The notes under the pieces: model-generated
Told to the model about the DNA's origin: nothing
The model's input: only the letters and a program-made list of their open reading frames with translations
Databases searched by the model: none
From: Opisthocomus hoazin
Taxonomy: Eukaryota; Chordata; Aves; Opisthocomiformes; Opisthocomidae
Direction: 5' to 3'
Length of the DNA: 64,000 bases
Assembly: GCF_030867145.1 (NCBI RefSeq)
Contig: NC_134428.1
Coordinates: 19,447,537 to 19,511,536 of the forward strand
Translations under genes and position numbers: made by a program
Shown here: one piece after another, positions 3,281-25,500 of the stretch
Position numbering within the stretch: the stretch's first letter is position 1
Layout: the number at the start of each line of letters is the position of its first letter

Positions 3281-3550
3281 GCCCTGTTTGCCTGTCCTGG
3301 TGGCCGCACTGCGGGTCGCTCGTGCTCCCTCGGGGAGCTTTTGTGAGGGGGGAGGGTGCCGCCGTCACTCTTGACCCCACTCTTCTTTGGGGGAGGGGGG
3401 TTGGGGGGGGCACGCTCTCTCTCGCCAGGCGGCTGTCTCGGCTGTTGTGCCGCTGAGAAAAGGTTTCCCCGGTGCGATCACTCGCTCCGGAGCCCTTCAC
3501 TGTGCGGTCTGTTCTTCTCTGCTGCCTCCAAACTGACAAGATGCTGTTGA

Positions 3551-5183
3551 GAGGATGCAGAGAAGGCAGAGCTACTGAATGCCTTCTTTGCTTCAGTCTT
3601 CAGTGCCAAGGCAGGCCCTCAGGAATCCCAGGCCCCGGAGGTAAGAGAGGAAGCCTACAGAGAGGATGACTTTCCCTTGGTCGAGGAGGACTGTGTGAGG
3701 GATCGCTTAAGCGATCTGGACGTCCACAAATCCATGGGCCCCGATGGAATGCACCCACGAGTGCTGAGGGAGCTGGCGGATGTCATTGCTGAGCCACTCT
3801 CCATCTTCTTTGAGAGGTCCTGGAGGACAGGAGAGGTGCCGGAGGACTGGAGAAAGGCCAGTGTCACTCCAGTCTTCAACAAGGGCAAGAAGGAGGACCC
3901 AGGGAACTACAGGCCGGTCAGCCTCACCTCCATCCCGGGAAAGGTGATGGAGCAGCTTATCCTGGAGGTCATCAACAAGCAAGTGGAAGAAAAGAAGGTT
4001 ATCAGGAGTAGTCAGCGTGGATTCACCAAGGGGAAATCATGCTTGACCAATCTGATAGCTTTCTACGATGACATGACTGGCCGGGTAGATGAAGGGAGAG
4101 CCATAGATGTTATCTACCTAGACTTCAGCAAGGCTTTCGACACAGTCTCCCATAATATTGTCCTAGGGAAGCTCAGGAAGTATGGGCTGGATGAGTGGTC
4201 GGTGAGGTGGATTGAGAACTGGCTGAATGGCAGAACTCAGAGGGTTGTCATCAGCGGCGCTGAGTCTAGTTGGAGGCCGGTAACTAGTGGTGTCCCCCAG
4301 GGGTCAGTACTGGGCCCAGCCTTGTTCAACTTCTTCATCAGTGACCTGGATGAAGAGTTAGAGTGTACCCTCAGCAAGTTTGCTGATGACACCAAACTGG
4401 GAGGAGTGGTAGATACACCAGCAGGCTGTGCTGCCATTCAGCGTGACCTGGACAGGCTGGAAAGTTGGGCAGAGAGGAACCTGATGAGGTTCAACAAAGG
4501 CAAATGCAGGGTCCTGCACATGGGGAGGAACAACCCCAGGCATCAGTACAGGCTTGGGGCGGACCTGCTGGAGAGCAGCTGTGCGGAGAGGGACCTGGGT
4601 GTCCTGGTGGACGACAGGTTAACCATGAGCCAGCAGTGTGCCCTGGCTGCCAAGAAGGCCAATGGCATTCTGGGATGCATCAAAAGGAGTGTGGCCAGCA
4701 GGTCGAGGAAGGTTCTCCTTCCCCTCTACACTGCCCTAGTGAGGCCTCTATCTAGAGTACTCTGTCCAGTTCTGGGCTCCCCAGTTCAAGAAAGATGAGG
4801 AGCTACTGGAGAGAGTCCAGCGGAGGGCTACAAGGATGGTGAGGGGACTGGAACATCTCTGCTATGAGGAGAGGCTGAGGGAGCTGGGCTTGTTCAGCCT
4901 GAAGAAGAGAAGGCTGCGAGGGGACCTAATAAATTCTTACAAATATCTGAAGGGTGGGTGTCAGGAGGATGGGGCCAAGCTCTTTTCAGTGGTGCCCAGT
5001 GACAGGACAAGGGGCAATGAGCACAAACTGAAGCACAGGAAGTTCCGTCTGAATATGAGGAAGATTTTCTTCCCTCTGAGGGTGACGGAGCACTGGAACA
5101 GGCTGCCCAGGGAGGTTGTGGAGTCTCCTTCTCTGGAGATATTCAAGACCCGCCTGGACAAGGTCCTCTACAACCTACTGTAG
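3551..5183 (+). pseudogene. CR1 ORF2 reverse-transcriptase part, frameshifted
   Basis: The sense ORF2 begins at [13 protein letters not shown] and lacks the endonuclease. RT motifs present are [27 protein letters not shown] and FADDTKL (catalytic FADD). An extra base near 4749 in CTCTATCTAGAGT, against CTCATCTGGAGT in unit 5, breaks the frame after LYTALVRP. The C-terminal part then continues in another frame, ending [12 protein letters not shown] before TAG at 5181-5183. Units 2 (15678-17310), 3 (32008-33640) and 4 (44124-45756) share this change. Confidence 0.9.
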
Positions 5184-5263
5184 GTGACCCTGCTCCGGCA
5201 GGAGGGTTGGGCTAGATGACCCACAGAGGTCCCTTCCAACCCCTACCATTCTGTGATTCTGTG

Positions 5264-5563
5264 AGATGTTTAAAGAAAAGAGTTTTAATTTTTGAAAGCG
5301 CGCGTAATGCTTGAAAGAAGAAATCAAAGTTTCTTTCCTGTATTTTTGATCACCTGCTGCAATCGCTACGCCAGTAAAACCCAAGGAGTGCCCCTTGCCC
5401 GAGGGGCAGACGCAGGGGCTTTGTTGCCAAATGCCTTCTCCCCCTTCCTCTCTCCCCCCGGCTGGGTCTCAGCGGTCTGCAATACCCTCTCCCCAGTTCG
5501 TGCCTGAGATGTTGGGGCTTGGGTTCATTCCGCTCTCTGAGCCCCCTTCCCTCAGCTGCGTCG
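5264..5563 (+). promoter_or_regulatory. GET4 upstream, CpG-rich promoter-like region, unit 1
   Basis: This is host sequence between the CR1 tail and the GET4 ATG. Its first 100 bases are the continuation of the SUN1 3' flank. The rest becomes GC- and C-rich, with CCCCTTGCCCGAGGGGCAG and pyrimidine-rich CTCTCCCCCC, and runs into a CpG-dense exon. No TATA box is evident; housekeeping genes such as GET4 usually have such promoters. Promoter activity is inferred from position. Confidence 0.45.
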
Positions 5564-5718
5564 ATGGCGGCCGCGATGATGGCGGCGGAGCAGGAAGCCG
5601 TCAAAGGCGGCGGCAGGAACCGCGGCGGCGTGCAGCGCGTGGAGGGCAAGCTGCGCGCCAGCGTCGAGAAGGGCGACTGCTACGAGGCGCACCAGATGTA
5701 CCGGACGCTCTTCCTCAG
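5564..5718 (+). CDS. GET4: GET4 exon 1, unit 1 (orphan first exon)
   Basis: ATG opens [13 protein letters not shown], then [37 protein letters not shown], ending in phase 2 at AG before GTGGGG. This matches the start of vertebrate GET4 (TRC35), which in the cytosol forms the BAG6-UBL4A-GET4 complex that hands tail-anchored proteins to the targeting ATPase. GET4 exon 2 is not found downstream, and exon 3 survives only as a damaged relic, so no GET4 protein can be made here. The exon lies 3' of SUN1 on the same strand, as in other vertebrates, but here another SUN1 copy follows it. Confidence 0.9.
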
Positions 5719-5988
5719 GTGGGGCCCGGCCCGCCGCCCTGCCCCTCCCCGCCCGGCCTTCCAGAGCCTTCCCACGCACCCAGCGTAACCACATCTGTTT
5801 TGCTTTCCTGGAAGCTTCTCTTCTGATGCCATCAAATGACTATAACTTTTGTGTAAGGGAATGCTGAGACTTGGTACTGTGCCTTAGCTGTAGATGTTGA
5901 TGAAAAGACTAAATCTACAAAATTCTGGTTGATGTTTTCTTTTCTGTACCGATATGTTCATCACTAGCAGCATCTGTCTGTTTTGTAG

Positions 5989-6067
5989 CAAAACAGTGCT
6001 GCTGATGTGTCCGTGCTGGGTTTGGAGTCTGGAGAAATCGGATGCAAAAGTAGCAGAGGACCTTTAG
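5989..6067 (+). pseudogene. GET4: GET4 exon 3 relic, unit 1
   Basis: The 79-bp block follows TTTTGTAG and precedes GTGAGG. It begins QNSAADVSVL-LES, matching human GET4 QNSAADLSMLVLES, then changes frame by an apparent two-base loss and continues LEKSDAKVAEDL, matching LEKAEVEVADELL. Joined to GET4 exon 1 (phase 2) it would read to a TAG at its last codon. GET4 exon 2, which should precede it, is absent from 5719-5988. Confidence 0.8.
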
Positions 6068-6287
6068 GTGAGGTGACTTTTGCACTCGCTTTGACGTTGC
6101 TCAGATGTGCTTTGAGTTGGAGACTGGTAACAACAGTCACTGTGCAACCTGAAATGCTTTTTGTATGCCCTCCCAGATGGCTAAGGGTTACCTTCGTCAT
6201 AGCAATGGACTGGGGGACAACTCGATTAGAGAATAGTGGGTTCCTGATAACTTTGTGGGCATGCTTAGAACAATTTTTCCTGTCAGA

Positions 6288-6528
6288 TTGTGCCAGGGGA
6301 GGTTTAGAGGAGATACTGGGATAGATATCTTCACTGAAAGGGTTGTCAAGCATTGGCACAGGCTGCCCAGGGAAGCGGCTGAGTCGCCATCCCTGGAGGT
6401 ATTTAAAAGACTTGTAGATGTGGTGCTCAGGGACATGGTTTAGTGGTAGACTTGGCGGTGTTATGTTCATGGTTGGACTTGATGATCTTCAAGGTCTTTT
6501 CCAACCTAAATGATCCCGTGATTCTACA
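6288..6528 (+). mobile_element. Short CR1 3' end, unit 1
   Basis: This is a 5'-truncated CR1 of about 240 bp. It contains CAGGCTGCCCAGGGAAGCGG, translating as HWHRLPREAAESPSLEVFKR (end of ORF2), then GGTTGGACTTGATGATCTTC, CTTTTCCAACCTAAATGAT and the tail TGATTCTA. It belongs to a CR1 subfamily different from the large insertion, whose tail reads GACCCACAGAGGTCCCTTCC. It lies in the fused GET4/SUN1 intron. Confidence 0.88.
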
Positions 6529-6661
6529 ATACAAATGACATTATTACTTTGTAATGTTCTGGGGTCTTTAACGCTTGTGTTTTTGTTTAGGATTTTGGGG
6601 AGAAGGAGCTGCTTTCATTGACAATATTGTGCTCAGCTCTTTTTTTTTATTATTTTTTTAG

Positions 6662-6892
6662 AAACAAAAGCCCCAGGAACGTTGGAAATAACGTGTGACA
6701 TCTCTGTACATCCCTGTGGCCCAAGAAGGGACAGACGCCTTAAGAAAGCTAGCCTAGAACACTGGAGAAAAGCACCGGAGCGTTTAGATTCTTGGGTCAC
6801 AATGCTGGGTGGTTCTAGAAGCTGGTCTTCTGCTGCGCAGTGCCCTGTAGCAAGGAGCTCGGCTCAGCTACGCAGCAGTGTTTCCTTCGAGT
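6662..6892 (+). other. Unrecognised exon-like open block, phase 1-1
   Basis: A 231-bp block is flanked by a long T-rich tract plus TTTTTTTAG and by the donor GTAAGT. One frame is open through all 77 codons, with fragments PRRDRRLKKASLEHWRK and GSRSWSSAAQ. It enters in phase 1 and leaves in phase 1, which fits the phase needed by the SUN1 exon at 9107. An in-frame ATG at 6802 has A at -3. I do not recognise the sequence as SUN1, GET4 or CR1. Equivalents: 18789-19019, 23003-23233, 35119-35349, 47235-47465 and 59358-59588. Confidence 0.45.
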
Positions 6893-9800
6893 GTAAGTAT
6901 GAGGCTTCTGCTTGAGGCTAAACTTCTGTTTTAGTACGTTTCTTTCCTGCCGATTCCTCTGTTTAATCTGTTAGTGATTGCCTTGTGTTGCTGATTTGCC
7001 TTGATTGTAAGTTTTCCTGGGGGTTCTGAGAGAATCAAATGTCGAAGTGCGGAGTAGAGTTCCTGGGGTAATGATGGGAAGCTTGTCTGCCTGTAAACTT
7101 GCCTCTGTAGGATAAACCAGAGAGAAAGGGATGAAAGACAAAACCATTTTTTGATTTGTTCAGAGTTAAAGATTTGTAATGATTGAGAGATGAAGAAATC
7201 TTTTAAAAACACTTGTTTTTTTTTAAACTCCTGGTAGTTAAACTAGTGTAGCTAAAGTAGGGAGGTCTTGAAGTGTCTTCAAGTGGGGAAGTTGCTTCTG
7301 GGTTGGCGTGTATGAACGTGTGTCCTCATCTTCCCTCTTTCCCCATCCATGTTTCCGTTCTGCCCTCAGACGTGTGCACGTACTCACTCTTTTGTTTTAG
7401 ATGTCTGCCTGCTGGAAATTCACAGTCCAGTGAGTAAACTTGATTTACTGGTGTGGTCAGCATCAGGACGCGTTGCACAGTCAAGTGAATGTGCCAGGCA
7501 AACGTATATGTGATGCAGCACCGTAGATTGTATAGATGTAATTCTCTGTTGTCATCTGTGCATAGAGTACTGTATTTGAAGAATGGTAAACACGTAGCTT
7601 GTCTTTGCAAAGCCAAAGGAAAAGCTTTCTCTTGTTTGTGCGTAGCCAGAAGTGTGTTTCAACTTAACATACCTTCACCTGACAGTTTCAAATTCGTGGC
7701 ACTGCAGTGTTTCCTGAGGGGGTTTTTGTCTGTGGCTGGCTGGTTTGTTTTTGCAAGGAGGTACAAGTATGCTTTTCTGGAACCTACTTTTTTCGTTGAA
7801 GAGGAGAATACTTTACGTAGACAATACTCCAGGTGTTGTGTAGGAGAAGATCAACAAATGACTATATCATAGAATCATAGAATCGTACGTTGGAAAAGAC
7901 CTCTAAGATCATCAAGTCCAACCGTCAATGACTATTTGTTTCCAGTCAGTGTGCCTGTGCCCTGGAGTTGTTTCAATCTCAGTAGAATGTGTTCGAAACT
8001 TTCAAATACCTGGCTCTTCAAACAGAATCTTAAAATACGGTAGTACCGAAGTAGTTACCAAGCAACAGAAACGGCATAAGCTTGTAATTAGCTGCTTTCA
8101 AGTCAGATGGGAGGTAAGAAAAGGTGCAGTTGTCATTCATATTTAGTTTGCTGCTCCCGTGGCAGAATGCTTTTCACTGTCTGTTACCCTACTACATTGA
8201 CGTCTGAATGTATGGATCTGTTTCTGTTCATGTAGTGGACTGCAAAATGCATTCAATACCAATCATAAAGTGGCTTTTCTTTGCAGTATTAAAATCAGTG
8301 GGACTTTTAGTGGGACTTTTACTTGGAGTTCTTGTCAGATATCGTAGTTGATTGTGGCGCTTCCTTACTTTTGGGACCAATTTTTTTTTTTTCTCCCCCT
8401 TGAAGGTCTTGATGGTGAAGGCAACCCTAAATTTAACTATGGTTTCATTTTCTTTCCGAGTGCATTTTATTCCATGGTGACTAGCGATGGCGATACTGAT
8501 AGCAATGCACTAGAGGCTTTCGTACAAGCTTGGCACACTGCTTACCTATTAGGAAAAACAAGGTGTAGGGACAGCATACACCTTGTATGTTAGAAAGAAG
8601 AAGTCATATTGTTAATTGATTCCACTTTGGGGCAGTTGGTACACTTGACAGGTTGAAAAGCTGCCTTGAAAGGAAAGCAAGGTATGAGGTATTGGTGTGC
8701 AGAAGATTTGAATAAAGGGGTTTTAACATTTTATTTTTGTTCTAGTGAGAGTCAGTTTTTCCAGGAGTCTTCTAGAGGGATAGCATCTTCCCTGTGAGAT
8801 GAGCGTTCGCTAGCTTGAATGACAGAGGCATCAAGAATCTGTGGAGTGCCCTTTATTCAGCAAAGGAAAATGATTTGAGACACTTCAGTCACCAAGATGC
8901 TTTGCAAAATACTGGGTTGCTAGATCTACAGTCCCTCAGATGAAGCCAGACATATCTGCTAATCTAAAAATGTATGCGTTGGCTGTGCTCACGCATTTCT
9001 CTGCTCTGCAAAGCATTCTTGGCCACAGTTGCATGTCCCTCTGCTTGGTTCCTTTGAACACGTGCCGCAGTAATGACATTTCGCGCTACCACTTTTTGTC
9101 TTCTAGGGAGGGCAGCTTCTGGCATGTACAGGTTACTCAGAACTGGATGGTATCAACTTGCTACTCTGATGTCTTTTCTCAAGGTGTTTCTTCTAAAGAG
9201 GTGCGTATCCTTTGAGAAAAGTGTTTTGTGAGCAAATGATTTACCCAGTTATAAAACAATACAAGAGGAGAAATGTGTTGTTTCATGTGAACTTTCCTCT
9301 TTCTTTCTCTAGATGCCTTCCAAAGACCTACAAGCTGTTCCTGTTTCTTCTGCCGCTCCTGTTTCCACTAGGTACGTGAATCGCTTAGTTATACTACAGA
9401 CCGGTGTATGCTTACTGCAGCCGTTCCAAGAGAGCGTTTTTAGTTGAGCTCTCGGTTTATGAAGAAGACGCAGAAGCAAAAAAGAGCAAGTTTGTTTGTG
9501 ACTAGGGCAGCAATTCAAGCTTTCAAAGTACTGACAAGTCAGTAGCCTTCCCCTTGCCGTGAAAGGAATACCCTCAATTTAATTTCGTAGAGCTCTTTAG
9601 AAAGTGAGAGTGGGTGGGTAAATGCACTGAAGTCCTTTTTTCTTCACCTGCCTTGATAAGAATATCAGTGAGGTCACAAAGAGCAGGTTGTGTACCGATT
9701 GCTTTGATTGTTGTTAATCTCCGTAAAAGTGGGGTTAGGTTCTTTGAGCAACTCATCCAAAGTCTTTCCCTTGCTCTGGACCATCCTTGAGTTGCTTAAA

Positions 9801-12800
9801 ATACTGCTGTTTAGACTGGTTAGTTGACAGTATTCCAGGCCAGCTGTCTTCTTTGAAATAAACAAACTCAGTTTCGAACACTTGCTGAAAGTGGTGGGCT
9901 GTTTCTGAAAAGCAGGTTCATGTCTTCGCATGTCCTAAAAACTTTAGAAACTACTCTGGGGAGAAGATGAAGCTTTGCAGAAACTTACAGTCAGGATTGA
10001 AAATCCTCTGTACTAGGGAGAATAAGAAAGGAAGAACTTCCCTACCCTGTGTAGAAAGTGCTGCTACTTCTTGCTAAGACAGTGCAAAAACAAGCGTCAT
10101 GTTTGTGAACTGCGAGATTGCCTAATATCTAACAAAAGTTGGAAGAAACTTGGGCTTCTGTGGAAACAATGTGGTATGTAGTACGTAGGGTACAGGGCAA
10201 GATATTTTCCATGGAGATAAAAAGCAGTTTTTTACATCTGCCTTCAGTGAGCATGGCCTGTCTTAATTGGTAAATGAGATCTAGGTCCCAGGGACGCAGT
10301 AGTATGAGATTGAGGATATACCATGAGACATAAGCGCAAGCTGCCTGCCATACAACGGTGTGAGCGGTACTGATGGATGTTCCCCAACGTGCTTGAGTGC
10401 TTGACTTCACAGTTTGACAGCTGGCTCATACTGATTTTTGTTTAGACTGGAGTAGTGTGCGCTGTGTGACGTCTAGCTTGCAAACTTAAGGTAGCTTGTG
10501 TCACGAAGTAGGAAGACGACCTGTAGATCTAAGCAGTCTTCAGGGGGAATTCTCTTGAACACCCTTTTTGCCTTTTGTTTGTGATCTAGGTATATGGTTC
10601 TGGGGGTTTGATGGCTGCTTCTCACTATTACCTTTGTTGAACTGGATCAAAATTGATAGAATACAGAGAACAGAGGACTCTCTCCGTGTTCGTGAACCGC
10701 AGGCTGATTCTTTGCACTCTGTGCAACCTCCAGAGGTAAGGGAGAACAGTCTAGGGAAGAACTCTGGTATCTTGGAAGACTTCTTAACTGCCATGCCTTC
10801 AATATTTGGCAAGAACTACTTGACACACAAGGCTAATGTGAATAAATGTCTTGATCTTTACATATATTAAAAAAATATTCTGTATACCTTAGGATTCCAT
10901 CGACATCTTTGCTTCTGGTCGTGAAAGTGAGCTGGAAAAGCAAATGGCCTTTCTGTCTGAGAGATACCATCACCTTGATGAAAAATATAGCAAAGTGATG
11001 CTTCTACTCCAGAACCTTCAAGATCAGGTTGCCCAGAAAAGTGACAAAAGCGAAACATTGACGCTAATACGAAATATGATGGGTCAACATCCTCAAGATG
11101 TGAGACTGGAGCAAAAGGTAAGATAGTCAGTTGTTGGTGCTTTTGGGTGGTGATCGACGTATCCTGTTTTAGTAATGCAGATTGCTAGCCATTTGATTCA
11201 GGCTTGCGTCCAATTTTGTGAGCAAAAGTGATTTGCAGCCTTTTCTGCGGGATCTAGAGTTGCAGATCCTCCAGAAGATCGCTCTCCATATGTCTGTGAC
11301 AAGCCAAAAGCTAACATCTGCAGTAGTAACAAAGGCTGTGACTAATGCAGGGGTTCGTGGAATCACAGAAGCGGTGAGTGAGTTGAAGTTCTCGCAAGTT
11401 CAACTAAAACCGTCAGGAGTCCTTTTCTAGGCATTTTTTGGAGCATCGCAGTCAATATAAACGTCAGTGACTTGAAGAGATGTTTAGAACATGAATTGAA
11501 ATGGGGAGAACTACAGAAAATGCTTGATGAAGCGTACGCTTACAGCATTGCTTGTTGCCTGTTGCGAATGTTGTTTTTTTTTTTCCAAAGTATGCTATCT
11601 TGAAAATTGCAGAATTCCCAAAAAAACAGCTATACCAAAGCAATGCAGCTCAGGGTCTGGGGAAGGTGGGGGAAAGAATGCAACTTTTGAAGAAAGCACC
11701 AGTCAATATGCAGTATGAATTTGTATTTTAAGCCAAAAAACCATGCACTAAAAATGGCCTCTGTCTTGAGAGAGGCTTTCAAAGACTTGCGATGGAGTGC
11801 AGCATCTCAAAAAGATGCTTATTCTACATGTATACAGATGTGTATAGATCAATTACTTTATCAGTTGATATTATTAAATTCTTCCCTTTCTCCCCTTCTG
11901 TGTGTATATCTGTAGCAAGTCCAGACTATTGTAAACAATGCCCTGAAACTTTTCTCTCAAGACAAGACTGGTATGGTGGATTTCGCCTTGGAATCTGGAG
12001 GTAAATAGTGGAGGAAACTCCACTTTCACGATTCGTGTTATTTTATAGTATCTACTAAAAATGTCGAAAGATCTGCTTGCGTGGGGTGTACGCACCACTG
12101 AACTCGCTAGGGAAAATGTGTATGTTTTAGCCCTCTGAGGTGAAAAACCTTGAACATGCTGAAAAGAACACTGTACTTGATAGAAGCATTGTATCCCCAG
12201 CCAATGACTAGACTTGAACAGTATCTTTACTAGTTGGTTTTGAGGAAAAGAACTGGTATGTTCACGAAGCTTTGTACAAATCTCTGGCTGAAAAGTCTTC
12301 AGGAAGAAATGAGTAATTATTTCGGCTAACCTGATACCTCTTTTTTAAGGTGGCAGCATTCTGAGTGCTCGCTGTTCTGAAACCTATGACAGCAAACCAG
12401 CAGTGATCAGCCTCTTTGGAATTCCTCTGTGGTACCTCTCTCAGCCTCCAAGGGCGGTGATTCAGGTAATTAAAGGCCGAGTGAAGAAATTCAGCAATGT
12501 TATTTTGTGCTGAGGGGTTTGGATTGTTTCTTGGATGCTGGATGTTTCTGTCTGCAACACACTGTGGGGCACGGGTCCTTTGAACGATGTTCCCAAGAGT
12601 GCCATTCTTCTGGTAGTTCCTGGGCACTGCTCAAGTCGTCTTCTAGCAAAACAAAGACCCTGCTAGGAGGCTTGGGTGGTACACTGGACTTCTGCAGAGT
12701 GTGAGCACTGGGAAGGTTCCTGTTGTGAAGTAGTCTCCAGGCGGATCTTCAAAACGCTGCTGGCTGTTTGGGTGGATGTGCTGTCTCCCTGAAGGATGCT

Positions 12801-14621
12801 ACCAAATAGATTATATTCTGCCACTTACTCTCTAAGACTGTCCCTAATAATTCAGAATTCGCCACAACTCTTTCTGGCAAAATGCTTGTGGCTGCAGGTT
12901 TTGTTGTTGCTGTTGTGTTCCATCCTGTTCTCTCCCCTTTCCTCCTGTCTAGCCGGACGTGTATCCAGGAAACTGCTGGGCTTTCAAAGGATCACAGGGG
13001 TATCTCGTAGTTCGACTTTCAAGGAAGATCTATCCGACTGCCTTTACGTTGGAACACATCCCAAAAGCACTTTCAGCAACAGGAGAGATCTCCAGTGCTC
13101 TGAGGAGCTTTGCAGTATATGTAAGTCTGTCTGTGAACTTCAGAGGATATTTGTATGCATAAAGAATATTTGTGGCGCAGATCTTGGAAAATAAGGACTG
13201 AAGGGAGGACAGCTAAGGAGAGAAACTGCTTGCTTTTAAAATTGCTGTTTTTGTAATCAGCTTTGAGATTAGGAATAAGAAGTGTTGCAGCTAATTTTGA
13301 GGGAGCTGTTTCTTTTTTTCCTGCTTTATACAGTAGTAAATATTTTTGGAGGGAGGTGACTGTTTTTGATTTGGTATCGTTCTTTCAGGCACTGGAACTG
13401 TTCCATCCTTCCACCACTCCTACTGCTTACCCTCTCCCTCCCCAGTGTTGGCTTTGCATCTTGTCTGTGATGTGCCTTCAGTGTGTTTTAAATTGATTTT
13501 AACTAGCACCACAGCTGCTTAGGCAGGACTGCAGAACAGAAGACCACAGGCTACATCAGAGTGTAGCTGTGATCCCTGAGAACATTTGTCTAGCTCCATT
13601 AAATGCTGAAGCCGCCGTCTGCAAGCATCTGAATCTTGGCTTCCGTCTTGTTTGTGATGTTGCTGTTTTCTCATTCTTGTTTGTCCTGAGCAGTTTACAT
13701 TGTACACTGCGATCTTGGTTGTGCCATGGAAATGATGGGGTTTGACCATGAAAACAGCAACATACAAACATAGCACAGCTCTTTGCAGTTCAGGAAAGTC
13801 AAATGCAGAGCTGTGGCTGAAGAAGCATGAAGTTCCACGGGAAGTATTCTGACCTCGGTTTCAGAGACTTGCGTTGACAGGCAGTTAGGTAGGCATGCTT
13901 CTGGCTTTGGTTTGACTTGAAATGTGATGGAAGCAAACGTCTTTCTCCTGTTGTTCTAGGGTCTAGATAATGAATATCAAGAAGGCGGCAAGCTTCTAGG
14001 ACAGTATGTCTACGACCAAGACGGAGAACCACTGCAGACCTTTCCAGTGATGGTAAGTCTGGATGAGAAGATTTCAAGTGTCAGAAGAAGCACACGCATA
14101 TTTTCTAGGGTAGTGCACAATGAGCAGTGAAGGAAAAAGGCTTCATTCTCTGTTGGGCACCGTAGAAACTGAGGTGGAAAGTAGCTACTGATCTGCCTCA
14201 AAACCTAAGGTTCGGATAGTTTAGAGGGGAGGAAAGTTTTGTGCCAGGTGGACACAAGTGGTGTGAAGATACCGAACGTATGAGGAGTCTGCTTCATGCT
14301 GCTTCTGACTCCCTTCACAAAAAAAACCCCAACAAACCGGTTGTAAGGCAAAGAAGGTTCTGTTCCAAGTGGCAGAAGGTTCCCAAGGCATCACTCAGTT
14401 GTTAATCAAAGTTGGTAGTTGCAGGAATGAAGGAAAGCACCTTCAGTTGCACCTGTTTATACTCCAAACCGAACTCTGGTTTGTGTGTTTGTTTTTTCCT
14501 TCTGCAGGAGAAAAGTGAAAACGCATTCCAAATAGTGGAACTGAGAGTGTTTTCTAACTGGGGACATCCGGAATATACCTGCCTTTATCGGTTCAGAGTG
14601 CATGGGAAACTTGCCGAATAA
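6662..14621 (+). CDS. SUN1: SUN1-like gene copy 1 (membrane helix, stalk, SUN domain)
   Basis: This copy can be followed across the unit border: 6662-6892 (unrecognised, optional), 9107-9200, 9313-9371, 10590-10735, 10893-11117, 11202-11373, 11916-12000, 12350-12465, 12953-13120, 13960-14052 and 14508-14621. Every exon has AG/GT borders. Phases match at each join except 11117 to 11202, where stalk exons known from SUN1 are absent. Leaving out 11202-11373 gives a single frame from the ATG at 6802 to the stop at 14619-14621 (about 396 residues). Compared with full-length SUN1, the nucleoplasmic lamin-binding region and most of the coiled coil are missing. GET4 exon 1 (5564-5718) lies upstream on the same strand. 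This copy has Pro for Thr in SETYDSKPA. It could be a functional short SUN protein or a decaying copy; expression is unknown. Confidence 0.7.
6893..9106 (+). other. Intron-like stretch without recognised gene
   Basis: Apart from the 57-bp antisense CR1 end, I recognise nothing coding. Short open stretches (for example 7489-7872) lack splice borders and homology. A T-run near 8381-8392 varies in length between units. The original junction between GET4 and SUN1 intron sequence probably lies in or just before this region, but nothing marks it. Equivalent stretches follow 19019, 23233, 35349, 47465 and 59588. Confidence 0.5.
7867..7923 (-). mobile_element. 57-bp antisense CR1 3' end, unit 1
   Basis: TCATAGAATCATAGAATCG then GTTGGAAAAGACCTCTAAG and ATCATCAAGTCCAACC are the reverse complement of a CR1 3' terminus with its repeated ATTCTATGA tail. 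Only the last 57 bases of the element are present. Equivalents: 19994-20050, 24208-24264, 36324-36380, 48440-48496 and 60563-60619. Confidence 0.82.
9107..9200 (+). CDS. SUN1: SUN1-like exon before the membrane helix
   Basis: The exon follows CTTCTAG and precedes GTGCGT. Read in phase 1-2 it gives RAASGMYRLL, then RTGWYQLATLMSFL and KVFLLKR. This matches the SUN1 stretch recalled as GKAASGVFWWLGIGWYQFVT then LISWLNVFLLTR in human. That stretch is the hydrophobic, membrane-associated part just before the transmembrane helix. Another frame of the same bases is also open and would mislead a simple ORF search. Confidence 0.85.
9313..9371 (+). CDS. SUN1: SUN1-like transmembrane exon
   Basis: This 59-bp exon (acceptor TTTCTCTAG, donor GTACGTG) encodes CLPKTYKLFLFLLPLLFPL in phase 2-1. 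It aligns with human SUN1 KFLVLLIPLFLLLAG, the single inner-nuclear-membrane helix. The last Pro is Leu in units 3-5 (CCA to CTA). Because the exon starts with one base completing a codon, it is also in phase with the end of GET4 exon 1. Equivalents: 21440-21498, 25654-25712, 37770-37828, 49886-49944 and 62009-62067. Confidence 0.87.
9372..10589 (+). other. SUN1 intron after the membrane exon
   Basis: This is a 1.2-kb intron bounded by GTACGTG and GATCTAG. The minus-strand open stretches here show no homology or splice structure. In unit 2 the breakpoint of the 4.2-kb duplication falls in this intron (22547/22549). Confidence 0.6.
10590..10735 (+). CDS. SUN1: SUN1-like exon just luminal of the membrane
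   Basis: The exon lies between GATCTAG and GTAAGG in phase 1-0. It encodes IWFWGFDGCFSLLPLLNWIK then IDRIQRTEDS, matching SUN1 GNFFSFLPVLNW followed by HRTQRVDD. In SUN1 this region links the membrane helix to the coiled-coil stalk in the perinuclear space. Confidence 0.88.
10893..11117 (+). CDS. SUN1: SUN1-like stalk exon, coiled coil
   Basis: This 75-codon exon, phase 0-0 (CCTTAG acceptor, GTAAGA donor), is helical and heptad-rich: SELEKQMAFLSERYHHLDEK and KVMLLLQNLQDQV. It corresponds to the first part of the SUN1 luminal stalk that helps form the trimer. Only 84 bp follow before the next exon, whereas SUN1 normally has several more stalk exons here. Confidence 0.85.
11202..11373 (+). CDS. 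SUN1: SUN1-like exon before the SUN domain, out of phase upstream
   Basis: The exon encodes NFVSKSDLQPFLRDLELQIL and later AGVRGITEA, clearly the SUN1 segment QFVSKGDLQTMLRDLQLQIL to GITEA. It begins in phase 2 and ends in phase 0. The exon at 10893-11117 ends in phase 0, so direct splicing shifts the frame. Other AGs nearby lead at once to stops. The exon is probably skipped, or it marks the copy as damaged. Its own reading frame is intact in all complete copies. Confidence 0.83.
11374..11915 (+). other. SUN1 intron between stalk end and SUN lead-in exon
   Basis: The intron is bounded by GTGAGT and CTGTAG. It contains an 11-T run near 11575 and no recognised feature. Confidence 0.6.
11916..12000 (+). 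CDS. SUN1: SUN1-like exon leading into the SUN domain
   Basis: The exon lies between CTGTAG and GTAAAT in phase 0-1. It encodes QVQTIVNNALKLFSQDKTG and MVDFALESGG, nearly identical to SUN1. It starts in phase 0, so it joins in frame either to the stalk exon 10893-11117 or to 11202-11373. Confidence 0.9.
12350..12465 (+). CDS. SUN1: SUN-domain exon 1 of copy 1
   Basis: The exon starts with GT completing Gly and then reads GSILSARCSETYDSKPA and FGIPLWYLSQPPRAVIQ. The donor is GTAATT. It is the beginning of the SUN beta-sandwich. Only this copy has Pro in place of Thr at SKPA. Confidence 0.9.
12953..13120 (+). CDS. SUN1: SUN-domain exon 2 of copy 1
   Basis: The exon has 56 codons in phase 0-0, from PDVYPGNCWAFKGSQGYLVV to ALRSFAVY. 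It contains the conserved NCWAFKGSQG and FTLEHIPK motifs of the SUN fold. Borders are TGTCTAG and GTAAGT. A longer open frame over the same bases (12796-13194) is out of register and not meaningful. Confidence 0.91.
13960..14052 (+). CDS. SUN1: SUN-domain exon 3 of copy 1
   Basis: The exon has 31 codons in phase 0-0, GLDNEYQEGGKLLGQYVYD then QDGEPLQTFPVM, matching SUN1 GLENEYQEEGQLLGQFTYD. The acceptor here is TTCTAG, against TTGTAG in other units. Confidence 0.9.
14508..14621 (+). CDS. SUN1: SUN-domain exon 4 and stop of copy 1
   Basis: The final exon runs EKSENAFQIVELRVFSNW, GHPEYTCLYRFRVHGKLAE, TAA. The C-terminal stretch ending in YRFRVHG forms part of the KASH-binding pocket in SUN1/SUN2 structures and is unchanged. 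The 3' untranslated region is interrupted after about 85 bases by the CR1. Confidence 0.91.
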   Translation, partial: EKSENAFQIVELRVFSNWGHPEYTCLYRFRVHGKLAE

Positions 14622-22547: not shown

Positions 22548-25500
22548 TGACTGGGGGACAACTCGATTAGAGAATAGTGGGTTCCTGATAACTTTGTGGG
22601 CATGCTTAGAACAATTTTTCCTGTCAGATTGTGCCAGGGGAGGTTTAGAGGAGATACTGGGATAGGTATCTTCACTGAAAGGGTTGTCAAGCATTGGCAC
22701 AGGCTGCCCAGGGAAGCGGCTGAGTCGCCATCCCTGGAGGTATTTAAAAGACTTGTAGATGTGGTGCTCAGGGACATGGTTTAGTGGTAGACTTGGCGGT
22801 GTTATCTTCATGGTTGGACTTGATGATCTTCAAGGTCTTTTCCAACCTAAATGATCCCGTGATTCTACAATACAAATGACATTATTACTTTGTAATGTTC
22901 TGGGGTCTTTAACGCTTGTGTTTTTGTTTAGGATTTTGGGGAGAAGGAGCTGCTTTCATTGACAATATTGTGCTCAGCTCTTTTTTTTTATTATTTTTTT
23001 AGAAACAAAAGCCCCAGGAACGTTGGAAATAACGTGTGACATCTCTGTGCATCCCTGTGGCCCAAGAAGGGACAGACGCCTTAAGAAAGCTAGCCTAGAA
23101 CACTGGAGAAAAGCACCGGAGCGTTTAGATTCTTGGGTCACAATGCTGGGTGGTTCTAGAAGCTGGTCTTCTGCTGCGCAGTGCCCTGTAGCAAGGAGCT
23201 CGGCTCAGCTACGCAGCAGTGTTTCCTTCGAGTGTAAGTATGAGGCTTCTGCTTGAGGCTAAACTTCTGTTTTAGTACGTTTCTTTCCTGCCGATTCCTC
23301 TGTTTAATCTGTTAGTGATTGCCTTGTGTTGCTGATTTGCCTTGATTGTAAGTTTTCCTGGGGGTTCTGAGAGAATCAAATGTCGAAGTGCGGAGTAGAG
23401 TTCCTGGGGTAATGATGGGAAGCTTGTCTGCCTGTAAACTTGCCTCTGTAGGATAAACCAGAGAGAAAGGGATGAAAGACAAAACCATTTTTTGATTTGT
23501 TCAGAGTTAAAGGTTTGTAATAATTGAGAGATGAAGAAATCTTTTAAAAACACTTGTTTTTTTTTAAACTCCTGGTAGTTAAACTAGTGTAGCTAAAGTA
23601 GGGAGGTCTTGAAGTGTCTTCAAGTGGGGAAGTTGCTTCTGGGTTGGCGTGTATGAACGTGTGTCCTCATCTTCCCTCTTTCCCCATCCATGTTTCCGTT
23701 CTGCCCTCAGACGTGTGCACGTACTCACTCTTTTGTTTTAGATGTCTGCCTGCTGGAAATTCACAGTCCAGTGAGTAAACTTGATTTACTGGTGTGGTCA
23801 GCATCAGGACGCGTTGCACAGTCAAGTGAATGTGCCAGGCAAACGTATATGTGATGCAGCACCGTAGATTGTATAGATGTAATTCTCTGTTGTCATCTGT
23901 GCATAGAGTACTGTATTTGAAGATTGGTAAACACGTAGCTTGTCTTTGCAAAGCCAAAGGAAAAGCTTTCTCTTGTTTGTGCGTAGCCAGAAGTGTGTTT
24001 CAACTTAACATACCTTCACCTGACAGTTTCAAATTCGTGGCACTGCAGTGTTTCCTGAGGGGGTTTTTGTCTGTGGCTGGCTGGTTTGTTTTTGCAAGGA
24101 GGTACAAGTATGCTTTTCTGGAACCTACTTTTTTCGTTGAAGAGGAGAATACTTTACGTAGACAATACTCCAGGTGTTGTGTAGGAGAAGATCAACAAAT
24201 GACTATATCATAGAATCATAGAATCGTACGTTGGAAAAGACCTCTAAGATCATCAAGTCCAACCGTCAATGACTATTTGTTTCCAGTCAGTGTGCCTGTG
24301 CCCTGGAGTTGTTTCAATCTCAGTAGAATGTGTTCGAAACTTTCAAATACCTGGCTCTTCAAACAGAATCTTAAAATACGGTAGTACCGAAGTAGTTACC
24401 AAGCAACAGAAACGGCATAAGCTTGTAATTAGCTGCTTTCAAGTCAGATGGGAGGTAAGAAAAGGTGCAGTTGTCATTCATATTTAGTTTGCTGCTCCCG
24501 TGGCAGAATGCTTTTCACTGTCTGTTACCCTACTACATTGACGTCTGAATGTATGGATCTGTTTCTGTTCATGTAGTGGACTGCAAAATGCATTCAATAC
24601 CAATCATAAAGTGGCTTTTCTTTGCAGTATTAAAATCAGTGGGACTTTTAGTGGGACTTTTACTTGGAGTTCTTGTCAGATATCGTAGTTGATTGTGGCG
24701 CTTCCTTACTTTTGGGACCAATTTTTTTTTTTTCTCCCCCTTGAAGGTCTTGATGGTGAAGGCAACCCTAAATTTAACTATGGTTTCATTTTCTTTCCGA
24801 GTGCATTTTATTCCATGGTGACTAGCGATGGCGATACTGATAGCAATGCACTAGAGGCTTTCGTACAAGCTTGGCACACTGCTTACCTATTAGGAAAAAC
24901 AAGGTGTAGGGACAGCATACACCTTGTATGTTAGAAAGAAGAAGTCATATTGTTAATTGATTCCACTTTGGGGCAGTTGGTACACTTGACAGGTTGAAAA
25001 GCTGCCTTGAAAGGAAAGCAAGGTATGAGGTATTGGTGTGCAGAAGATTTGAATAAAGGGGTTTTAACATTTTATTTTTGTTCTAGTGAGAGTCAGTTTT
25101 TCCAGGAGTCTTCTAGAGGGATAGCATCTTCCCTGTGAGATGAGCGTTCGCTAGCTTGAATGACAGAGGCATCAAGAATCTGTGGAGTGCCCTTTATTCA
25201 GCAAAGGAAAATGATTTGAGACACTTCAGTCACCAAGATGCTTTGCAAAATACTGGGTTGCTAGATCTACAGTCCCTCAGATGAAGCCAGACATATCTGC
25301 TAATCTAAAAATGTATGCGTTGGCTGTGCTCACGCATTTCTCTGCTCTGCAAAGCATTCTTGGCCACAGTTGCATGTCCCTCTGCTTGGTTCCTTTGAAC
25401 ACGTGCCGCAGTAATGACATTTCGCGCTACCACTTTTTGTCTTCTAGGGAGGGCAGCTTCTGGCATGTACAGGTTACTCAGAACTGGATGGTATCAACTT

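What the first reader, a model, noticed from the sequence alone, without database searches (positions are those of the whole stretch)
5564..14621. GET4 first exon and promoter placed in front of SUN1 3' exons: potential fusion gene
In vertebrates GET4 follows SUN1 on the same strand. Tandem duplication of a block from inside SUN1 to inside GET4 puts each internal SUN1 body downstream of a GET4 promoter and exon 1. GET4 exon 1 ends in phase 2, and the membrane exon at 9313 takes phase 2. A transcript joining 5718 to 9313 and omitting 11202-11373 would keep one frame from the GET4 ATG to the SUN stop (387 codons including stop). A SUN protein driven by a housekeeping promoter would be a new gene.
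Basis: partly seen in the sequence, partly recalled or inferred. Interest (0 to 1): 0.85.

Follow-up and report, generated by a model that had tools for sequence, protein, structure and literature searches.

The report
Decaying SUN1-GET4 tandem repeat array
A stretch running from inside one gene (SUN1) into the start of its neighbour (GET4) has been copied head to tail some two dozen times; the pieces can be joined on paper into a fusion gene, but the copies change like unused DNA and lack much of the GET4 promoter region, so they look like leftovers and not a new gene.

Summary
The window lies wholly inside a head-to-tail array with a 12.1-kb unit (five GET4 exon-1 copies, 99.4-99.9% identity) on C15 of a 1.48-Gb genome (25 or more full-length copies). 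The 387-codon GET4-SUN1 frame exists as stated and is open in 7 of 7 testable places.

The interpretation, a SUN gene driven by the GET4 promoter, is not supported. (1) The 222 CpG-rich bases just before the real GET4 ATG match the genome once, at terminal GET4; fetched core units also lack the intron-1 part of the island. E1 joined to it, to 6662, or to 9107-9313-10590 ends in a stop; 7 of 256 exon subsets keep the frame. (3) SUN exons look neutral: 37 nonsynonymous/nonsense to 12 synonymous changes, and coding sites vary like noncoding sites; 4 of 16 copies with all exons are broken.

Best reading: a recent in-place segmental-duplication array of chimeric pseudogene fragments. Expression is untested.

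The parts
5270..5560 (+). Retained distal upstream DNA of GET4, 92.8% identical to the terminal GET4; the next 222 bp of the real gene are missing after it
5564..5718 (+). GET4 exon 1 copy (E1), phase 2 at its end; reads C for Y and L for F against the PDB GET4 sequence
5784..6284 (+). GET4 fragment around exon 3 (intron before it, relic exon, intron after it), joined to the E1 side by a 4.1-kb gap that removes exon 2 and most of the intron-1 CpG island
5989..6067 (+). Relic of GET4 exon 3 with two small frameshifting gaps; AG/GT sites present; stop in the E1 frame
6285..6540 (+). CR1-like LINE 3' end (name and extent from recall) at the GET4/SUN1 duplication junction; its 3' part matches the parental SUN1 intron
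6662..6892 (+). Open stretch with AG/GT sites; lies in a parental SUN1 intron, not a SUN1 coding exon; E1 spliced to it meets a stop after 12 residues
9107..9200 (+). SUN1 exon X2 (hydrophobic segment), takes phase 1; contains an internal ATG that opens a 360-codon SUN frame if X6 is skipped
9313..9371 (+). SUN1 membrane exon X3, takes phase 2; in frame if joined directly to E1
10590..10735 (+). SUN1 exon X4
10893..11117 (+). SUN1 exon X5 (coiled coil), ends phase 0
11202..11373 (+). Truncated SUN1 exon X6; its AG comes from intron DNA brought next to it by a 3.1-kb deletion; breaks the frame if included after X5
11916..12000 (+). SUN1 exon X7
12350..12465 (+). SUN-domain exon S1
12953..13120 (+). 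SUN-domain exon S2
13960..14052 (+). SUN-domain exon S3
14508..14621 (+). SUN-domain exon S4 with the stop codon
1..64000 (+). Tandem array of the 12.1-kb unit; E1 copies at 5564, 17691, 34021, 46137, 58260

Best explanation
This is an in-place tandem segmental-duplication array at the SUN1-GET4 locus. A block from a 5' intron of SUN1 through the SUN1 3' end into the intron after GET4 exon 3 was duplicated. The copies lost SUN1 N-terminal and coiled-coil exons, GET4 exon 2 and much of the GET4 CpG island, and one shortened form spread to some two dozen near-identical units, presumably by unequal crossing-over and gene conversion (inferred). Each unit is a chimeric pseudogene fragment. Its long open frames are inherited from SUN1 and are still open because the spread is recent, not because they are selected (inferred). 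The working proteins presumably come from the SUN1 at the left edge and the GET4 at the right edge. Shown: arrangement, missing parts, edges, a substitution pattern that fits neutrality. Inferred: recombination mechanism and lack of function.
For: All 44 matches to the SUN1 body of a unit lie on C15; 25 cover the whole query at 95-100% (a lower bound by the tool's own note). SUN1 exon matches from the start Met onward lie at 19271294-19293951, with coiled-coil exons that the units lack. GET4 exon 1 and eight further exon matches lie at 19733331-19744571; the three genome matches to the GET4 family are all there. The CpG-rich bases just upstream of the GET4 ATG have 1 match in the genome, at terminal GET4, and none in the 200 kb on the left or in the window; 21 E1 copies align end to end across the place, 20 without change of length and 1 with 15 bases more. 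Core units: variable sites 10 of 1255 coding against 100 of 8918 noncoding non-CR1, Fisher p 0.38. Distinct changes against the core consensus in 14 of the 25 gene places held: 37 nonsynonymous or nonsense, 12 synonymous, pN/pS 0.89, not different from neutral at kappa 1, 2, 4 and 6. Of 16 array copies with all exons X2-S4, 2 have a stop and 2 a frameshift, all among the diverged outer ones. In 6 of 8 diverged copies coding divergence from a window unit is above noncoding.
Against: All 7 places in which E1 lies within 5 kb and all fusion exons are held keep the 387-codon frame. Against the parental SUN1, coding divergence is below noncoding in all three segments: 18/524 to 72/1703, 1/85 to 13/611, 2/491 to 26/2094; S2-S4 show 0 differences between parent and core consensus over 375 nt. 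Constraint on the parent, constraint on the units or gene conversion could each give this. In 2 of 8 diverged copies coding divergence is also below noncoding. X6 skipping, needed for the frame, is made plausible by the loss of its native acceptor, though its pyrimidine count (10 of 16) is no worse than that of X5 (9 of 16). Whether the 222 bp were lost from the units or gained by terminal GET4 cannot be decided without an outgroup. The selection test has power only against strong constraint.
Confidence: 0.8

Rival explanations
1. A transcribed new chimeric gene: GET4 exon 1 spliced to the SUN1 membrane exon gives a 386-residue protein with a GET4 N-terminal peptide in place of the SUN1 nucleoplasmic domain.
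For: Frame and splice sites exist; open in 7 of 7 testable places; X6 has lost its native acceptor.
Against: Proximal CpG-island segments missing; must skip the exon-3 relic, 6662-6892, X2 and X6; 7 of 256 exon subsets keep the frame and one of these keeps all of X3, X4, X5 and X7; substitution pattern fits neutrality; E1 has an F to L change at a residue where terminal GET4 agrees with the PDB GET4.
Confidence: 0.05
2. A short SUN1 paralogue started at the ATG inside exon X2 (360 codons, hydrophobic segments plus SUN domain, no nucleoplasmic domain), working like a dominant or sperm-type short SUN protein.
For: The frame is present when X6 is skipped, with or without the exon-3 relic upstream; X2-S4 is open in 12 of 16 array copies with all these exons. 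Short SUN1 forms exist: mouse Sun1-eta lacks exons 7-10 and is testis-restricted (PMC2919408, section 9 read).
Against: No promoter is known in the unit; upstream ATGs in E1; substitution pattern fits neutrality; broken in 4 of 16 copies.
Confidence: 0.08
3. Assembly artefact: the array is inflated or collapsed.
For: Near-identical units; an odd partial unit at 22548.
Against: Units differ by scattered variants, outer units are 2-5% diverged with their own rearrangements, and the array is bounded by SUN1 and GET4 sequence on one contig. Exact copy number is not verified.
Confidence: 0.05

Closest known systems
Tandem segmental duplications of vertebrate genomes (117-species survey, PMC13431229; passages seen by find)
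   Same: Local head-to-tail duplication within 1 Mb; the passages seen report a bias of vertebrates towards tandem over interspersed duplication
   Different: Here the unit is a chimera of two neighbouring genes, present 25 or more times; the paper's main text has 0 occurrences of SUN1 and of GET4
SUN1 (parental gene at the left edge)
   Same: Exons X2-X5, X7 and S1-S4, same phases
   Different: Units lack the N-terminal nucleoplasmic exons and the 3.1 kb holding further coiled-coil exons
GET4 (parental gene at the right edge)
   Same: Exon 1 and an exon-3 relic
   Different: Units lack the proximal CpG island, exon 2 and the exons after 3
Mouse testis-specific Sun1-eta isoform (PMC2919408; passages, and section 9)
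   Same: A SUN1 form that has lost part of the nucleoplasmic domain
   Different: It is a splice product of the intact gene (lacks exons 7-10), shown by RT-PCR and immunoblot; no transcript data were available here

Membership tests
Chimeric (fusion) gene | Exons of two genes in one order and strand with a continuous reading frame available | tested here: met
   387-codon frame
Chimeric (fusion) gene | Retains the promoter of the 5' partner | tested here: not met
   CpG-rich segment next to the ATG: 1 genome match, terminal GET4 only; intron-1 island absent from the core units held; 291 bp further upstream kept at 92.8%. Tested by sequence only, not by activity
Chimeric (fusion) gene | Frame preserved by selection | tested here: not met
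   pN/pS 0.89, 37 to 12; coding and noncoding diversity alike in core units; parent comparison shows fewer coding than noncoding differences. Weak constraint is not excluded
Chimeric (fusion) gene | Transcribed and translated | not testable with these tools
   no RNA or protein data held
Tandem segmental-duplication array | Head-to-tail copies over 1 kb and over 90% identical | tested here: met
   12.1-kb unit, 99.4-99.9% within the window; 25 full-length matches at 95-100%
Tandem segmental-duplication array | Flanked by the source genes | tested here: met
   SUN1 on the left, GET4 on the right
SUN-domain protein (Sad1_UNC) | Sad1_UNC domain over the cut-off | tested here: met
   spliced model: 154.2 bits against cut-off 22
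Working SUN1 orthologue | N-terminal nucleoplasmic domain present | tested here: not met
   parental exons at 19276503, 19277075 and 19279503 fall in gaps of the unit-to-parent alignment

The most novel reading that the evidence does not exclude
The array is a young germline-expressed family of short, multi-copy SUN1-derived proteins (starting at the X2 methionine, or as the GET4-SUN1 fusion) that compete with SUN1 in meiotic or sperm LINC complexes, kept by copy number and homogenisation with too little time for a selection signal.
Probability: 0.07. Interest if true: 0.75.

Novelty: new member of a known kind. Interest (0 to 1): 0.27.

Why it matters
It documents a clean case in which both parents of a two-gene chimera still flank 25 or more copies of it, so the missing parts and the spread can be read against them. 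It also shows why an open fusion frame in a recent array is not by itself evidence of a new gene: here promoter, splice order and substitution pattern speak against it. If transcripts were found after all, it would be a multicopy SUN-domain family, of interest for meiosis.

Tried and rejected
Rejected: 6662-6892 as a SUN1 exon. It maps to a parental SUN1 intron, and E1 spliced to it meets a stop.

Rejected: simple recombination between two matching CR1 elements as the origin of the junction. Unit 6285-6540 is CR1-like, but the GET4 side of the parent aligned only up to about unit 6284 and showed no such element in the stretch compared, so only a CR1-associated junction is claimed.

Rejected: constraint on E1. 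In 87 comparable nt, E1 differs from terminal GET4 at two places, both amino-acid changing.

Not done: the full parental SUN1 coding sequence was not assembled. Its exons are known from matches to a recalled human protein; X2-S4 without the coiled-coil exons is open. No outgroup was available: the host is represented only by the window's own assembly. No call named the species; 'bird' rests on recalled CR1 features and gene content.

Literature: six searches showed no paper on a SUN1-GET4 array in the rows listed (all rows in 8, 9 and 33; 20 of 32 in 34; none found in 52; 8 of 249 in 53). Only listings were seen, apart from PMC13431229 (listed; passages) and PMC2919408 (listed; passages and section 9).
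Full report
Setting. The window is C15:19447537-19511536 of a 1.48-Gb, 415-contig genome. A self-comparison shows that the whole window is one head-to-tail array with a period of 12.1 kb; copies are 99.4-99.9% identical, with one irregular joint at 22548. GET4 exon 1 occurs at 5564, 17691, 34021, 46137 and 58260. Searching the genome with the SUN1 body of a unit gives 44 matches, all on C15, 25 of them covering the whole query, from 19.285 to 19.730 Mb (40 of 41 candidates scored, so a lower bound). A 514-base query around E1 gives 33 matches, of which 21 are full length.

E1 ends in phase 2, the exon at 9313 takes phase 2, and E1 plus eight SUN1 exons without 11202-11373 gives 1161 nt, 387 codons, one frame. 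E1 matches GET4 in the PDB (7ru9_C, E 4.6e-22). The SUN part matches SUN1 (E 3.8e-101) better than SUN2 (best so named 2.5e-84) and Pfam Sad1_UNC.

The parents are still there. Left of the array, with a recalled human SUN1 as guide, SUN1 exon matches run from the initiator Met at 19271294 to the stop at 19293951, including N-terminal exons at 19276503, 19277075 and 19279503 and coiled-coil exons between 19287270 and 19290371. The full coding sequence was not assembled. Right of the array lies GET4: exon 1 at 19733331 (68 bases read N) and eight further exon matches, numbered 2-9 here, at 19737366-19744571. The three genome matches to the GET4 family are all there.

What the units lack. Compared with the parents, the units lack the N-terminal SUN1 exons, 3.1 kb of coiled-coil exons, GET4 exon 2, and two parts of the GET4 CpG island. 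The 3.1-kb deletion fused intron DNA ending in ATTCAG to the middle of a parental exon. That is why 11202-11373 is out of frame, and it means that this exon has lost its own acceptor. The 222 bp next to the GET4 ATG are 78% GC with CpG o/e 0.87; a 230-base query over them matches the genome once, at terminal GET4. The intron-1 part of the island is absent from the core units held but survives in 3 left-hand relics at 86% identity, so that loss happened within the array lineage. For the 222 bp the direction cannot be shown. The units keep 291 bp of more distal upstream DNA at 92.8% identity. Calling the remainder 'the GET4 promoter' is therefore not justified; weak activity cannot be excluded.

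Splicing. The block carries a relic of GET4 exon 3 (5989-6067) with AG and GT and two frameshifting gaps. E1 spliced to this relic meets a stop at its last codon; E1 to 6662 stops after 12 residues; E1 to 9107 to 9313 to 10590 stops in the last of these. With S1-S4 always kept, 7 of 256 subsets of the eight optional exons keep the frame from the GET4 ATG to the SUN stop; three of the seven include 9107-9200. It must skip exon 9107-9200, whose acceptor has 13 of 16 pyrimidines; X6 has 10 of 16, X5 9 of 16, so this crude measure does not single out X6 as weak. A frame that needs no fusion starts at the ATG in 9107-9200 (360 codons, if 11202-11373 is skipped).

Selection. Among ten core units (seven complete, three partial) 10 of 1255 coding sites vary against 100 of 8918 noncoding non-CR1 sites and 11 of 1782 CR1 sites (Fisher p 0.38 for the first two). 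Parent against core consensus: 5 synonymous and 17 nonsynonymous. One search chained exons into 25 gene places in the sequence held, parent included; these are not the 25 full-length matches. Eight lack exons: four because the fetched sequence ends (19408159, 19420274, 19432401, 19509339) and four because exons were not found (19296258, 19324362, 19468770, 19728005). Of the 17 with X2-S4, 13 are open (parent and 12 copies) and 4 broken: stops at 19309484 and 19332809, frameshifts at 19638190 and 19678632. The pooled test used 14 places, leaving out three whose length differs (one of them, 19696134, open): 36 nonsynonymous, 1 nonsense and 12 synonymous changes; pN/pS is 0.89, and the share is not different from neutral for kappa 1, 2, 4 and 6. 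The fusion frame is open in all 7 places where E1 lies within 5 kb and every exon was held; because these copies are nearly identical, this counts as little more than one observation.

Results against this reading. Against the parental SUN1, coding differences are fewer than noncoding in all three aligned segments (18/524 to 72/1703, 1/85 to 13/611, 2/491 to 26/2094), and in two of eight diverged copies as well, the rightmost and L037; in the other six, coding is above noncoding. S2-S4 show no difference between parent and core over 375 nt. Constraint on the parent or gene conversion could explain this, but weak constraint on the units is not excluded.

Verdict. The anatomy is as described and its origin is confirmed. 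The evidence favours a recent array of chimeric pseudogene fragments, evolving about neutrally, between its two parent genes. Spread by unequal crossing-over or conversion is inferred from the homogeneous core and diverged edges. No RNA evidence was available either way.

Noticed in passing
window 22548: Irregular joint: after unit position 10420 the array jumps back to unit position 6208, giving an extra partial unit with 6662, X2 and X3 but no X4-S4 before the next full set.
   Followed up: partly
parental SUN1, C15:19286958-19293951 (L016, L017): Mosaic divergence from the units: X5 12 of 225 and X6 11 of 172 differ, S2-S4 0 of 375; suggests gene conversion between parent and array.
   Followed up: partly
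L018, L019, L021 (C15:19301275, 19316144, 19339308): Three left-hand relics keep the last 27 nt of GET4 exon 1 and about 350 bp of the intron-1 CpG island that the core units lack.
   Followed up: partly
C15:19295532-19295870: Leftmost relic: the GET4 upstream region and first part of exon 1 joined directly to SUN1 intron DNA, a second, separate GET4-SUN1 join.
   Followed up: no
G000:C300:2989-3177 (+) and 13324-13512 (-): Two Sad1_UNC matches in opposite orientation on contig C300, in long open frames (178 and 339 aa); possibly an inverted pair of another SUN gene.
   Followed up: no
window 3490-5271: A CR1-like LINE fragment (name and extent from recall) sits between the SUN1 stop and the GET4 upstream region in the unit read.
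   Followed up: no
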